In this document: positions 29,552 through 35,003 of the stretch, piece by piece
Numbering within the stretch: the stretch's first letter is position 1
How the letters are laid out: every line of letters starts with the position of its first letter
DNA from: Natrarchaeobius chitinivorans
GTDB lineage: Archaea; Halobacteriota; Halobacteria; Halobacteriales; Natrialbaceae
Assembly (NCBI RefSeq): GCF_003841505.1
Contig: NZ_REGA01000027.1
Span: 1-35,003 of the forward strand
Direction: 5' to 3'
DNA: 35,003 nucleotides
Notes under the pieces: model-generated
What the model was told of the DNA's origin: nothing
Databases searched by the model: none
Seen by the model: the letters and a program-made list of their open reading frames with translations, nothing else
Made by a program: the position numbers and the translations under genes

Positions 29552-30313
29552 TTACCACTCGAGTTCGACTCTCGTTCCGTCGGCCCGACAGGTTTCGAGC
29601 GCGTGTTTCGCGTCGAAGCCGGCGTCGTGTGCGTTCGATCCGCGCCCGACGCCGACCTGGAGTTCGACGTCGACGGCGTCCTCGACGTGACGGATCGCCT
29701 CCTCGTAGTCGGCGGCCTCGAGATCCGGGCAGACGACGATGACGTTGTCCCCGCCGACGAAAAACGAGAGGCTGTCGTGGGCGTGGCGCATGTGACGCAT
29801 GAGTTCCGCATAGCCCTGTTCGATGTGGATGAAACTGTCGAATGCGTTGAGTTCGTCGGTGTACTGGCCCGTCGCGTCGATGACGTCGAAGTGGGCGATC
29901 TGGACGTCGTCGTCGGTGCGGTGTGGCTCGTCGACCGTCCGTCCCTCGAGACACTCCCGTCTGCTGTCGTCCTGTGCGCTGCCGGCGTTCTGGACGAGCG
30001 TCGTGGCGTCGGAAAGCGCCTGAACGGGCGAGGTGCCGGTCGCGACGCCGAGACTGAGTGTGACGGGATATCGGTTGCCGACCGACTCCTGGAGCAACTC
30101 GTGGTCCTCGAGCGTCAGGCCGTTCGTGACGGCGATCATGTTGTCGAAACGGGTGAAAAAGACGTAGCCGCCGCGGTTGCCGACGAACTGGGAGATGTCG
30201 GCGTAGAGCCGAGACTGCATCGTCTGAAGGTCGGCTTCCCGCCGGGGTTCCGGAGTCACCGTCCACGGCCCGTAGTTGTCGATCTGAACGAGCGAAACCT
30301 GCGTATTAGTCAC
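29552..30313 (-). CDS. gch3: GTP cyclohydrolase III
   Basis: This 253-residue protein matches the archaeal GTP cyclohydrolase III family (MJ0145 type), which opens the GTP ring to give the formamidopyrimidine FAPy nucleotide for riboflavin and coenzyme F420 synthesis. It holds two tandem copies of a nucleotide-cyclase-like fold: VSLVQIDNYGPWTV with GGYVFFTRFDNMIAVTNG in the first half, and HIEQGYAELMRHMRH with FFVGGDNVIVVCPD (GGDN motif) in the second, plus VGVGRGSNAHDAGFDAKHALE near the end. The start is GTG, and a TATA box CACTTATAC lies about 30 bp upstream. No other riboflavin genes are nearby. Confidence 0.92.
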   Translation of the reverse strand: MTNTQVSLVQIDNYGPWTVTPEPRREADLQTMQSRLYADISQFVGNRGGYVFFTRFDNMIAVTNGLTLEDHELLQESVGNRYPVTLSLGVATGTSPVQALSDATTLVQNAGSAQDDSRRECLEGRTVDEPHRTDDDVQIAHFDVIDATGQYTDELNAFDSFIHIEQGYAELMRHMRHAHDSLSFFVGGDNVIVVCPDLEAADYEEAIRHVEDAVDVELQVGVGRGSNAHDAGFDAKHALETCRADGTRVELEW

Positions 30314-30445: not shown

Positions 30446-30769
30446 TCAGGCGGGTTTTTTCTCGGGATTCGATCCCGTCGGGTGGTACTCCCAGAAGTTC
30501 CCCTCCCGCATCGCCGCGCCGACGGCCTTGTGCATGTCCGTTATCGTTTCGAACTCCTCCCCGTCGACGTACTCGAAGATGTCGGCAAGCGCGACGACCG
30601 TCTGGTAGTTGATCCGGATCGGATCGTTCCCGTACTCGGCGACGAACTCGTCTCGCTCGAGGGGGAAGTCCTCCTCCTCGTCGACCTTCTTGGCGATGAT
30701 CGCCATGTCGTACTTGCGCATCCCCTCGCTTCCCTCCTCGCCGTCAGGGTCGTGTGGCCAGTCGCTCAT
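30446..30769 (-). CDS. DUF5785 family protein
   Basis: This 107-residue soluble protein ([55 protein letters not shown]...) looks like the conserved haloarchaeal DUF5785 family. The first 20 residues are acidic and flexible; the rest is a compact alpha/beta domain with a predicted helix [29 protein letters not shown]. Its function is unknown. I choose MSDW as the start because it has a TATA-like CCTTTTGC about 27 bp upstream. It is divergent from mutS. Confidence 0.75.
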
Positions 30770-31016
30770 GCCCGATGGTGTGCGTGGAGGGTGCAAAAGG
30801 ATTTCTTCTCGCGGTTATCGCGTTCGTCCGGAGTATCGACAATCTCGAGTGGCGACGGACGTGGCGGGGGACGAGTGCCCAATGGCGGCATCTGACTGGT
30901 TCGAACGGGATGTTCTGCAGCAGATCTTCCCTCCAGAACGTCCGAGTCCGGGCATCGTCCCGTCAATCCCGGTCGATCCAGCAAGCTATTTCCCCGTCGG
31001 GCGGCGGCATGTGGAT

Positions 31017-33833
31017 ATGGATCCGGCGCTTGGCCCTCCCGAAGAGATGGCCGAGAAACGAGACGAACTGACGCCGATGATGCGTCAGTACCACGACCTC
31101 TGTGCGCGCTACGACGACGCGCTCGTTCTCTTTCAGGTTGGCGACTTCTACGAAACCTTCTGTGGGGCCGCCGAGCGAACTGCACGGCTGCTCGAGATCA
31201 CGCTCACGAGCCGCGAAGACAGCACCGGCGAGTACCCGATGTCCGGCATCCCCATCGACAACGCCGAGTCGTACATCGAGACGCTACTCGAGGCGGGCTA
31301 CCGGGTCGCCGTCGCCGATCAGGTCGAAGAGCCCGGCGAGTCACCCGGCGTCGTCGAGCGGGCGGTGACTCGAGTGATCACCCCCGGGACGCTCACCGAG
31401 GACGAACTACTCGCGAGCGACGACAACAACTTCGTCGCCGCGGTTTCCCGTTGGGACGGCGAAACCGGCGCGAGCGGCGAAGACGACGAACTCGCGCTCG
31501 CCCTGCTCGACGTCTCGACCGGCGACTTCCTCGCGACCAGTTCGCGTTCGACCGACGCCATCGCCGACGAGATCAGCCGGTTCGATCCGGCGGAGGCGGT
31601 CCTCGGCCCCGACGCGCCGCGGGACGTCCTCCCGGACGATTGCATGGTCACGCCGTTCGACCGCGAGGCGTTCGACCGCGACCACGCGGCCGATCTGCTC
31701 TCCCGGTATTTCGGCCAGCCCGACGCGTTGCTCGCGAGCGACGTCGAGATCCGCGCCTGCGGTGGCCTGCTCGCGTACGCGGAGTACGTCCGGGGCGGCG
31801 AACACGGGTCGGACGGAGTTGACGGGAGCGTTTCCGGTCAGACAGACGCCGACGGGGACCGGGTCGACGAAGACGACGGAGGCGGCGAAACCGCACCCGC
31901 AAACGCGACGGTCGACCACGACGAGCGCAACCGACTCGAGTACCTCACGCGGCTCACCAGATACGACCCGCGCGAGTACCTGTTGCTCGACGCCGTCGCT
32001 TTGCGAAGCCTCGAGTTGTTCGAGCCGCGGGCCGTCCACGGGCGCGAGGACGCGACGCTCGTCGGGGTGGTAGACGAGACGGCGAGCGCGCTCGGTGGCC
32101 GGAAGCTCAGAGACTGGGTCCGACGGCCGCTGCTCGAACCGGGGCGAATCGAGTCCCGGCTCGACGCCGTCGAGGAGCTAATCGGAGCGGTACGGATTCG
32201 GGACGGACTCTACGACCACCTCCGGGACGTCTACGACCTCGAGCGACTGATCGGTCGGATCTCCCGCGGGCGGGCGAACGCCCGCGACCTGCGATCGTTA
32301 CGGGATACGCTCGCGGTCGTCCCCGAGATCCGCGACGTGCTCGCCGAAACCGACTGCGACCGCCTCGAGCGAGTTCACGACGATCTCGACCCGCTCGTCG
32401 ACGTCCGCGAGTCGATCGACGACGCGATCGTCGAGGCTCCGCCGATCGAGATCACGGAGGGCGGCATTATCGCCGACGGCTACGACGAGGATCTGGACGA
32501 GCTTCGGGCGACCGCCCGCGACGGCAAGCGGTGGGTCGACGACCTGGAGGAACGAGAGCGCGAGCGAACCGGGATCGACTCGCTGAAAGTCGATTACAAC
32601 TCGGTCCACGGCTACTACATCGAGGTGACGAACCCGAACCTCGAGTCGGTCCCCGACGACTACGAGCGCCGCCAGACGCTGAAAAACGCGGAACGGTTCG
32701 TCACGCCGGAACTCAAACGACGTGAGGACGAGATCGTCGGTGCCGAAGAGCGCGCGGACGAACTCGAGTACGAACTCTTCTGTGAGGTCAGACGCGCGGT
32801 CGCCGACGAAGTCGAACGGGTACAGGCGCTCGCGGACGCGGTCGCGACCCTCGACGTGTTCGTCTCGCTCGCGAGCGCCGCGGCCCAGTACGACTACTGT
32901 CGCCCGGAAATCGTCGACGAATCGGCCGGTGGAGAAGCGGGCGAAGTCTCCGACGACGATTCCCGCGGCGGACTCGAGATCGATATCGAAGGCGGTCGCC
33001 ACCCCGTCGTCGAACGAACTCAGGAGTCGTTCGTCCCCAACGACGCACGCCTCGAGGACGACCGGCGGCTGGCGATCATCACGGGTCCGAACATGTCGGG
33101 GAAGTCGACGTACATGCGTCAGGTGGCACAGATCGTTTTGCTCGCCCAGGTCGGCAGCTTCGTGCCCGCGCGGGCGGCACGGATCACCCCCGTCGACCGG
33201 ATCTTCACGCGAGTCGGCGCGAGCGACGACATCGCGGGCGGTCGCTCGACGTTCATGGTCGAGATGGACGAACTCGCGACGATCCTTCGGGAGGCGGACG
33301 AACGCTCGCTCGTTCTGCTCGACGAGGTGGGTCGCGGAACGTCGACCGCCGACGGACTCGCGATCGCTCGAGCGATCACGGAACACCTCCACGACGAGGT
33401 CGGCGCGCCGACGCTCTTTGCCACCCACCACCACGCGCTCACCGAACTCGCGGACGACCTCGAGGCCGCGTTCACACTCCACTTCGAGGTCGGGCAAGAC
33501 GACGACGAGGTCGTGTTCCACCACGAAATCGCCCCCGGTGCGGCGACCGGTTCCTACGGGGTCGAGGTGGCGACGGCCGCAGGGGTGCCGGGCGACGTCG
33601 TCGAGCGGGCGCGGGAACTGGTCGCGGATTCGGAAGACGGGGCTACGACGGATCAGAGTCAGGGAAGACCGTCAGCCATCGGGGGGACGGCCGGTTCCTC
33701 GAGCGCGACCACTGACGGCGGAGACGACCCGACCGACGTCGCAGCCGAACTGCGGGCGCTCGATCTCGCCCACCTGACCCCCGTCGAGGCGCTGACCGAA
33801 CTCGATCGGCTGAAGCGACTCCTCGAGGAATAA
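31017..33833 (+). CDS. mutS: DNA mismatch repair protein MutS
   Basis: This 938-residue protein recognises mispaired bases. The N-terminal domain shows GDFYETF at 42-48, with the Phe-x-Glu pair that wedges into mismatches. Connector, core and clamp domains follow. The ATPase has a Walker [10 protein letters not shown], from residue 690, the Walker [13 protein letters not shown], and [10 protein letters not shown]. An acidic disordered loop (about 260-303) and a Ser/Gly-rich linker near the C-terminus lengthen it beyond bacterial MutS. I set the start at ATG 31017 ([20 protein letters not shown]), the usual N-terminus; the open frame continues upstream but is unlike the family. A TATA-like GCTATTTCC lies about 31 bp upstream. 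No mutL is in the window. Confidence 0.96.
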
Positions 33834-33849
33834 GTCGGGTCCGGTTGCG

Positions 33850-34602
33850 TCACTCGGGGTCGGGCTCGAGCGAGACGAACTCGAGACCGTGTTCGGCCAG
33901 CAGCCGTTCGGCCCGCTCGGTGACCGAGGGAGCGACGAGAACGCCGCGAACCGCGGCGTCGGCGTGGAGGTCTCGAGCGAGTGCGTCGACGTATCGCCGC
34001 AGTTGACTCACCGCGTCCGGCCCCACGCGACGGCGTTTGAGTTCGACGACGACGGCCCGTCCCGCCGTATCCTCGCCGTAGATGTCGACGGCTCCCGCGG
34101 GGGTGTCGCGTTCGGTCGCGAGCGGCCGGAACCCCGGCTCGAGCAGGGTCGGCTCCTCGAGGATTCGCTGTCGGAGATCCTCCTCCGTTCCCGAAAGCGC
34201 GAGTTCGTTCTCGTCGGAGCCGGCGAACGACGACACCTGCAGGACGTCGCGGAAGCGGACGAGAAGCCGTTCTTCCGGCGTCTTCCGAACGCTCTCGAGG
34301 ACGAGCGCGTCGGTTCCTTTCTCGCGGACACACCGGACGTCGTGATCACAGCCGGGCGGCTGCCAGTTGACCGGCTGTTGGCCCTCGTCGGTGTGGACGA
34401 GCGTCGCGCCGTCCGGTTTGAGCATGACGTGGCGGTCGCCCTCCGCGAGTCGGCTCGAGGCCCGCCCCTCGTAATCGACGGTACACCGTCCGAAGACGGT
34501 GACGAGCGCTTCGCGCTCGGTCCCCTTTGCGATCGCCTCTCGGGCGGCCTCCGGGGACGGATCCTCGAGGCTCGAGACGGAGGCACGTTCGGTCGTCGTC
34601 AC
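33850..34602 (-). CDS. nucS: EndoMS/NucS mismatch-specific endonuclease
   Basis: This 250-residue protein cuts both strands around mismatches (EndoMS) and also acts on flapped or splayed DNA. The N-terminal DNA-binding domain has Arg47 (VDYEGRAS) and NWQPPG with Trp80, and the C-terminal nuclease domain has VDIYGED (Asp173), VVELKRRR (Glu187, Lys189) and QLRRYVDAL, which match known active-site residues of the family. I see no clear PIP-box for PCNA binding at the C-terminus, which ends EFVSLEPDPE. The start is GTG, supported by a TATA box about 27 bp upstream. It is convergent with mutS, with 16 bp between the two stops. Confidence 0.93.
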   Translation of the reverse strand: MTTTERASVSSLEDPSPEAAREAIAKGTEREALVTVFGRCTVDYEGRASSRLAEGDRHVMLKPDGATLVHTDEGQQPVNWQPPGCDHDVRCVREKGTDALVLESVRKTPEERLLVRFRDVLQVSSFAGSDENELALSGTEEDLRQRILEEPTLLEPGFRPLATERDTPAGAVDIYGEDTAGRAVVVELKRRRVGPDAVSQLRRYVDALARDLHADAAVRGVLVAPSVTERAERLLAEHGLEFVSLEPDPE

Positions 34603-34769: not shown

Positions 34770-35003
34770 GTGCACTTGCAAGCGTCGACTGCTTAGCTTA
34801 TCTCTTCTGAGCACCTCTCTATAGGGATGGGACGGAAAAAGCACATCGTCAACCTCTCTGACAAGGAACGAAGCGAACTTGAGGCGATTATCTCGACGGG
34901 TGAACATAGAGCAGAGGATATCACCCGCGCACGAATCCTGCTAAAGGCTGACGAGGGGCTCACAGATCCCGCGATCTGTGAGCACCTCGATTGTTCGATC
35001 TCT
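34770..35003 (+). mobile_element. IS630-family insertion sequence, left (5') end
   Basis: A terminal inverted repeat at 34770-34794 (starts GTGCACTTGCAAGCG) mirrors the right end of the transposon at the other window edge. A transposase gene starts at 34827 and continues past the window. The element is in the same orientation as the one at 1-199. Confidence 0.75.
34827..35003 (+). CDS. IS630-family transposase, N-terminal fragment
   Basis: The 59 visible codons begin MGRKKHIVNLSDKERSELEA, then HRAEDITRARILLKADEGLTDPAICEHLDCS, which is the N-terminal helix-turn-helix of IS630-type transposases that binds the terminal repeats. The frame runs off the window end. A CTATAGGG sequence just before the ATG may be part of its promoter. 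Confidence 0.8.
   Translation, partial: MGRKKHIVNLSDKERSELEAIISTGEHRAEDITRARILLKADEGLTDPAICEHLDCSIS

What the first reader, a model, noticed from the sequence alone, without database searches (positions are those of the whole stretch)
31017..34602. mutS and nucS encoded tail to tail
Seen: MutS (mismatch recognition) and EndoMS/NucS (mismatch-cutting nuclease) genes converge with 16 bp between stops; mutL is absent from the window. Established: MutS-MutL and NucS are independent mismatch-repair routes, and many organisms with NucS lack MutS; some haloarchaea have both. Inference: tight linkage could mean coordinated use, or antisense control where converging transcripts overlap.
Basis: partly seen in the sequence, partly recalled or inferred. 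Interest (0 to 1): 0.55.

Follow-up and report, generated by a model that had tools for sequence, protein, structure and literature searches.

The report
MutS paired with NucS, not MutL
In salt-loving archaea one of two copies of the DNA-mismatch sensor MutS is kept, tail to tail, with the DNA-cutting enzyme NucS instead of with its usual partner MutL, which suggests a mixed repair pathway that still has to be tested at the bench.

Summary
In detail: mutS1 (31017-33833 +) and nucS (33850-34602 -) converge with 16 bp between stops. It is not peculiar to this genome. This MutS ("MutS1b" here) is a second paralogue; the genome's only mutL lies elsewhere, near the other MutS (MutS1a). In 116 haloarchaeal genomes the MutS1b-nucS pair converges within 7 kb in 50 of the 62 that have both and belong to lineages without a second MutL. 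In the remaining lineages MutS1b carries a second MutL ("MutLb") in the slot where nucS sits. Of 391 genomes, 19 have MutS1b without NucS; 18 of these carry MutLb beside it, and the other is an 85%-complete assembly. Two genomes have MutS1b and NucS but no MutL. The NucS-linked MutS1b clade has lost the hydrophobic residue that aligns with E. coli MutS M759, a MutL contact. The linked NucS has lost the C-terminal clamp-binding tail (0 of 110). Best reading: MutS1b hands mismatches to NucS instead of MutL. The association is well supported; the physical hand-off is inferred. Antisense control is poorly supported, because the short gap is not conserved.

The parts
31017..33833 (+). mutS1b: MutS1 paralogue, 938 aa, mismatch-binding F-Y-E (residues 44-46), Walker [11 protein letters not shown]-terminal domain present
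   Evidence: F-x-E and Walker names recalled
33850..34602 (-). nucS (NucS1): EndoMS/NucS endonuclease, 250 aa, mismatch pocket Y44/R47/N79/W80 and catalytic-type D173/E187/K189 kept, no C-terminal clamp-binding tail
   Evidence: catalytic role of D/E/K recalled
33834..33849 (.). 16 bp between the two stop codons
33519..33521 (+). codon of MutS1b H835, aligned with E. coli MutS M759 (MutL interface 1); Leu in all MutL-paired haloarchaeal MutS1 examined
33429..33431 (+). codon of MutS1b H805 (aligned with E. coli residue 729): fixed His signature of the NucS-linked clade, Tyr in MutL-paired MutS1

Best explanation
MutS1b and NucS form a dedicated mismatch-processing module in haloarchaea, in parallel with the ordinary MutS1a-MutL module. 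Proposed mechanism: MutS1b binds a mismatch and, in its ATP-bound clamp form, brings in or licenses NucS, which cuts; NucS takes the place that MutLb holds in sister lineages. NucS no longer needs its own sliding-clamp tail because MutS1b recruits it. Shown: conserved convergent linkage, partner exchange MutLb/NucS, co-absence, genomes with this module and no MutL, loss of a MutL-contact residue, loss of the NucS clamp tail. Inferred: direct MutS1b-NucS contact, order of events, type of cut in vivo, and whether the main job is replication-error repair or control of recombination / gene conversion.
For: (1) Linkage: 75 of 80 nucS loci have this MutS in the fetched stretch, 74 on the opposite strand; 50 of 62 genomes with both genes in the non-MutLb lineages converge within 7 kb; across the Natrialbaceae/other boundary only nucS and mutS are shared by nearly all loci among neighbours. 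(2) Partner exchange: 19 of 19 fetched loci of the MutLb lineages have MutLb directly downstream of MutS1b on the same strand; 18 of 19 NucS-minus MutS1b-plus genomes have it. (3) MutS1b tree: NucS-linked clade 100*, MutLb-linked clade 99*. (4) 13 genomes lack both MutS1b and NucS; two genomes of one genus (G010, G221) have MutS1b plus NucS, no MutL, no MutS1a. (5) Site aligned with E. coli M759: Leu in 38/38 MutLb-paired and 13/13 MutS1a, non-Leu in 116/116 of the NucS clade, mostly H/D/E/R/Q. (6) Clamp tail: 0 of 110 linked NucS, against 8 of 9 NucS2 paralogues and 7 of 8 NucS outside the class. (7) In Halobacterium-like genomes linked NucS has also lost pocket residues Y and N (4/4) but keeps catalytic-type residues.
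Against: In Halobacterium salinarum deletion of mutS1A, of mutS1A and mutS1B together, or of mutL gave no mutator phenotype (PMC2816208, passages); a second NucS there (VNG_1986G, PMC9997560) could mask it, untested. 12 of 62 genomes have the genes far apart. NucS of family f4, which sits apart and coexists with MutS1b-MutLb, also lacks the clamp tail, so tail loss does not track linkage strictly. The M759 and tail changes are few evolutionary events, and enrichment of changed sites in MutL-related positions is weak (2 of 8, P = 0.04); the I597 equivalent does not differ and the P595 equivalent does not separate the clades. Co-loss of neighbouring genes can be one deletion. Convergent genes are not an operon. 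Four genomes keep a NucS of another clade without MutS1b (G208, G209, G236, G253), and one f4 genome too (G279).
Confidence: 0.6

Rival explanations
1. Relic of an ancestral mismatch-repair gene island: mutS1b, nucS, mutS1a and mutL once lay together and the pair simply has not been broken up; MutS1b works with the remaining MutL and NucS works alone.
For: In several genomes outside the Natrialbaceae-like f1, mutS1a and mutL lie about 5-40 kb from mutS1b-nucS (e.g. G035, G018, G031, G053, G058, G003).
Against: Other neighbours of the pair are not shared across families; partner exchange with MutLb; MutL contact site lost only in the NucS clade; G010 and G221 have no MutL.
Confidence: 0.22
2. 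MutS1a and MutS1b form a heterodimer (as MSH2-MSH6 do), and MutS1b lost the MutL contact because the partner subunit supplies it; linkage with nucS is secondary.
For: Eukaryotic MutS dimers are thought to split the two MutL interfaces between subunits (PMC4521584, passages); most genomes have both paralogues.
Against: G010 and G221 lack MutS1a; f5 and f11 genomes have MutS1b-MutLb only; MutLb-linked MutS1b keeps the contact residue although MutS1a is usually present; does not predict co-occurrence with NucS.
Confidence: 0.1
3. Antisense or overlap control: converging transcripts of mutS and nucS regulate each other.
For: Gaps of -4 to 42 bp in most of f2, in f6, f8 g42, f9 and part of f3, and 16 bp in the window.
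Against: 20 of 21 linked genomes of the window's family are 390 bp or more apart, with unrelated genes in the gaps inspected.
Confidence: 0.05

Closest known systems
Canonical MutS1-MutL mismatch repair
   Same: MutS1b is a full MutS1 with mismatch and ATPase motifs; a sister clade of it sits in an operon-like pair with an endonuclease-type MutL (MutLb).
   Different: The NucS-linked clade has no MutL of its own beside it, two genomes have no MutL at all, and the residue aligned with the MutL contact M759 is lost.
[quoted passage not shown]
   Same: Same enzyme family and, in most members, the same mismatch pocket and catalytic-type residues.
   Different: The known pathway works without MutS and uses a C-terminal clamp-binding tail; the haloarchaeal MutS-linked NucS lacks the tail and is tied to a MutS.
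nucS-radA operon of Thermococcus
   Same: Another genomic link of nucS to a DNA-repair gene (PMC7776575, PMC8228993, passages).
   Different: Partner is the recombinase, co-transcribed, conserved only in Thermococcus.
The two MutS1-MutL pairs of Haloferax volcanii
   Same: f4-type genomes here show two MutS1-MutL sets plus a free nucS, as described for H. volcanii (PMC7776575, passages).
   Different: Most other haloarchaeal families have nucS in the slot of the second mutL.

Membership tests
MutS1 (mismatch-recognition MutS) | Five MutS domains, score over the mutS1 cut-off, F-x-E motif, Walker A | tested here: met
EndoMS/NucS | NucS_N plus NucS_C, equivalog score, pocket Tyr/Asn/Trp and catalytic-type D/E/K residues | tested here: met
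Clamp-dependent NucS pathway | C-terminal PIP (clamp-binding) tail | tested here: not met
   window NucS ends 2 residues after the last aligned position, the T. kodakarensis and P. abyssi chains run on for 14 and 18; 0 of 110 linked NucS have a PIP-like tail
Canonical MutS-MutL repair | mutL encoded with or beside this mutS | tested here: not met
   the only mutL is on another contig, near MutS1a
Canonical MutS-MutL repair | MutL-contact residues (interface 1) kept in MutS | tested here: inconclusive
   M759 equivalent lost, I597 equivalent is Val as in MutL-paired MutS1, P595 equivalent is Ser; by alignment only, no binding data
Canonical MutS-MutL repair | MutL binding and endonuclease activation by this MutS | not testable with these tools
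   needs protein

The most novel reading that the evidence does not exclude
A third mismatch-repair arrangement: a MutS sliding clamp that loads or licenses NucS directly, without MutL and without NucS's own clamp tether, so that mismatch sensing by MutS is coupled to a double-strand-cutting nuclease in polyploid cells that can repair the break from sister genome copies.
Probability: 0.5. Interest if true: 0.88.

Novelty: new variant of a known kind. Interest (0 to 1): 0.77.

Why it matters
Reviews treat MutS-MutL and NucS as nearly mutually exclusive, convergent solutions and say that their interplay in the few organisms with both 'remains to be elucidated' (PMC5290159, PMC7776575, PMC8228993, passages). 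The comparison here gives a concrete answer to test: one MutS1 paralogue belongs with NucS, the other with MutL. It also suggests why the Halobacterium mutS/mutL deletions had no phenotype (a second, free NucS remains), and names the genes for a decisive double-deletion experiment in a tractable, harmless organism.

Tried and rejected
Rejected: that the adjacency is peculiar to this genome. Rejected: that MutLb lacks the nuclease and so needs NucS; the three MutLb scanned have MutL_C, and of the 19 MutLb 17 match DQHAX2EX4E and two only its HAAxE core. Rejected as NucS-specific: the conserved N-terminal peptide MDxALGPPEKM, which the MutLb-linked clade shares in weaker form. Looked for differences at the equivalents of E. 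coli Q211/Q212, P595, I597 and Y563: none separates the clades cleanly, except a partial one at 623 (A against mostly V) (equivalence of Q211/Q212 and Y563 read from the printed alignment). The first list of nine 'NucS present, MutS1b absent' genomes shrank on inspection: G365 has a MutS1b fragment at its contig start, convergent with nucS; G376, G286 and G389 matched only NucS2-like proteins; G208, G209, G236, G253 and G279 remain, with NucS outside the linked clade. G362 remains the one MutS1b-plus genome of the NucS clade without a NucS found. No structure prediction or fold search was run. A literature search with 'gene neighborhood' gave nothing; no paper seen comments on mutS-nucS adjacency (searches; open-access library only).

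Full report
What is there. The two genes are as described: mutS 31017-33833 (+) and nucS 33850-34602 (-), stops 16 bp apart; both are full-length members of their families by curated models. The window is a whole contig of a haloarchaeal genome; the nearest named match for nucS is Natrarchaeobius chitinivorans, 83%, so the host is taken to be a member of the Natrialbaceae. The genome has a second MutS1 on contig C3, 40-41% identical over most of its length, about 4 kb from the only MutL. I call the window's gene MutS1b and the other MutS1a; these labels are mine and were not matched to the names used for H. volcanii or H. salinarum.

Conservation of the pair. From 80 nucS loci of public genomes (the best 80 of 115 found, biased towards close relatives), 75 carry a MutS of this type in the fetched stretch, 74 on the strand opposite to nucS and one (L088) on the same strand; five have none. 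As a control I compared all ORF families within 8 kb between 40 Natrialbaceae and 40 other loci: nucS (by construction) and mutS (39/40 and 36/40) are shared, along with ORF families at their positions that I take to be antisense or out-of-frame readings of them (by position, not checked one by one); the other conserved neighbours of one group occur in 0 of 40 of the other, and the remaining shared families in the list are few and low in number: 14/7, 5/4, 1/8. In 116 genomes spread over the class, positions from three searches give 62 genomes with both genes in families f1, f2, f3, f6, f7, f9 and genus g42 of f8: 50 converge within 7 kb (gaps from -4 to 6707 bp between matches), 12 are more than 100 kb apart. 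Many gaps outside f1 are 0-42 bp; in f1 20 of 21 linked genomes have 390 bp or more, and in the ten gaps I inspected (chosen by hand, mostly long ones) the ORFs differ and look like ordinary chromosomal genes (read by eye).

The slot of the second MutL. In f4, f5 and genus g33 of f8 (47 of the 116) MutS1b is not near nucS: 43 have a nucS, none within 100 kb on the same contig, four have none. Instead, in 19 of 19 such loci fetched, a short MutL (about 550-610 aa, 'MutLb') follows MutS1b on the same strand, overlapping it or within 63 bp in 18, 774 bp away in one. MutLb is a real MutL: MutL_C in the three scanned, and the endonuclease motif DQHAX2EX4E in full in 17 of 19, in part in two. The MutS tree (63 rows, quick method) separates MutS1a from MutS1b, and within MutS1b a NucS-linked clade (33 rows, SH-aLRT 100) from a MutLb-linked clade (18 rows, 99), with the f5 row unresolved. 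Family f8 holds both types, and genera g69 and g73 of f3 carry MutS1b-MutLb while most other f3 genera seen carry MutS1b with nucS.

A prediction and its test. A larger sample of 391 genomes was searched with a MutS1b profile and a NucS profile: both 350, neither 13, MutS1b only 19, NucS only 9 (Fisher P = 1.7e-10, not corrected for kinship). I predicted that the 19 would have MutLb; 18 do (G021, G044, G073, G068; the other 14). The nineteenth, G362, is 85% complete in about 210 contigs and has no nucS within 12 kb of MutS1b. The 13 that lack both fall in seven genera: f1 g6 (4), f1 g2 (1), f2 g14 (2), f2 g46 (2), f3 g15 (1), f10 g67 (2), f8 g33 (1). Of the nine NucS-only genomes, G365 in fact has a MutS1b fragment at a contig start convergent with nucS, three (82-92% complete) have only NucS2-like matches, and five have NucS outside the linked clade. 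Two genomes of genus g18 (G010, G221) have no MutL and no MutS1a, but a convergent, touching MutS1b-nucS pair; both also have a NucS2 match.

What changed in the proteins. The MutS-MutL crystal structure places E. coli P595, I597 and M759 in MutL interface 1; the triple mutant P595A/I597A/M759D fails in repair and in MutL binding, while P595A/I597A and M759D alone do not fail in repair (PMC4521584, passages). In an ungapped HMMER block E. coli residue = window residue - 76, so H835 aligns with M759. At this site Leu stands in 38 of 38 MutLb-paired MutS1b and 13 of 13 MutS1a; in the NucS clade, 94 linked rows have H 35, D 21, E 18, R 8, Q 5, Y 3, S 3, N 1, and none of 22 further rows of the clade has Leu. 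Rows with 750 or fewer filled columns were dropped first (97 to 94, 23 to 22, 39 to 38). Site 805 is His in 116 of 116 against Tyr in all MutL-paired rows with a letter. As a wider check, 208 sites are conserved alike in the two MutL-paired groups; 8 are lost in the NucS clade, 2 of them among the 9 conserved MutL-related sites (P = 0.04); the reverse control loses 6 of 218, none MutL-related. This is suggestive, not strong, and rests on few evolutionary events.

NucS. Known NucS uses a C-terminal clamp-binding (PIP) tail, needed for activation in the cases studied (PMC8228993, passages). The window protein stops where the P. abyssi and T. kodakarensis chains run on. With one regular expression, 0 of 110 NucS next to MutS1b, 4 of 41 NucS1 not near it in the fetched stretch and 8 of 9 NucS2 paralogues have a PIP-like tail (rows cut by a stretch end and duplicate tails were dropped, groups split at 42.5% identity with one row, L124, placed by hand). 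The four are G250, G323, G209 (f8 g33) and G374 (f3 g69), genomes whose MutS1b is of the MutLb type or absent. Outside the class, 7 of 8 NucS loci have such a tail (read by eye from the printed ends; the eighth reading frame has stops) and none shows a MutS1 in the fetched stretch, so the tail is probably ancestral. f4 NucS lacks it too. The mismatch pocket (Tko Y41, R44, N76, W77; PMC6829318, passages) is kept in the 96 main linked rows (one row has a gap at Y and R), but in four Halobacterium-like rows Tyr is replaced by F/L and Asn by Ala while D173, E187 and K189 stay. Genomes of that genus in the samples have a second NucS match, tailed where the end was read. A division of labour follows as inference: NucS2 as the free enzyme, NucS1 as the one led by MutS1b.

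Reading. The most economical account is that MutS1b needs a nuclease partner and that this is MutLb in one clade and NucS in the other. That they work together is, in my judgement, likely; that MutS1b recruits NucS physically is a step beyond the data. The strongest published result against it is the lack of a mutator phenotype in H. salinarum after deletion of both mutS1 genes or mutL (PMC2816208, passages); that species has two nucS genes (PMC9997560, passages). In H. volcanii, whose described gene set resembles the f4 genomes, deletion of nucS and of a gene called mutS1b impaired gene conversion while mutS1a did not (PMC11276520, passages), so the module may serve recombination as much as replication fidelity.

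Novelty. Papers seen note that some haloarchaea have both systems and that the interplay is open (PMC5290159, PMC7776575, PMC9997560, passages). None seen remarks on the adjacency or the partner exchange, within the open-access library and the searches named in Tried and rejected. Locus tags VNG_0171 (NucS) and VNG_0172 (MutS) in PMC9997560 imply the same adjacency in H. salinarum.

Noticed in passing
L174, L175, L231, L232, L236-L239 and others: A second NucS (NucS2, about 40% identical) with a PIP-like C-terminal tail occurs in family f2 and some other haloarchaea, in a separate clade.
   Followed up: partly
L214, L216-L218, L220-L222, L234, L235: Genomes of f8 g33 and f3 g69/g73 carry a NucS clade apart from the MutS-linked one, some with PIP-like tails; G209 has three NucS matches.
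   Followed up: partly
G021 (f5), G218 and G382 (f11): These small genomes have MutS1b-MutLb as their only MutS1-MutL set: no MutS1a and no NucS found; G382 is 88% complete.
   Followed up: no
G286 (f11 g80), G389 (f3 g28): No MutS1 and no MutL found, only a NucS2-like protein; both assemblies are under 90% complete.
   Followed up: no
window 34828-35003: An ORF fragment at the contig end looks like the start of an IS630-type transposase (by eye, no search done), which may be why the contig ends there.
   Followed up: no
window 29552-30313 and 30446-30796, both minus strand: GTP cyclohydrolase III and a DUF5785 protein lie upstream of mutS.
   Followed up: no
G035, G018, G031, G053, G058, G067, G094: mutS1a and mutL lie within about 5-30 kb of mutS1b-nucS, hinting at an ancestral mismatch-repair island.
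   Followed up: partly
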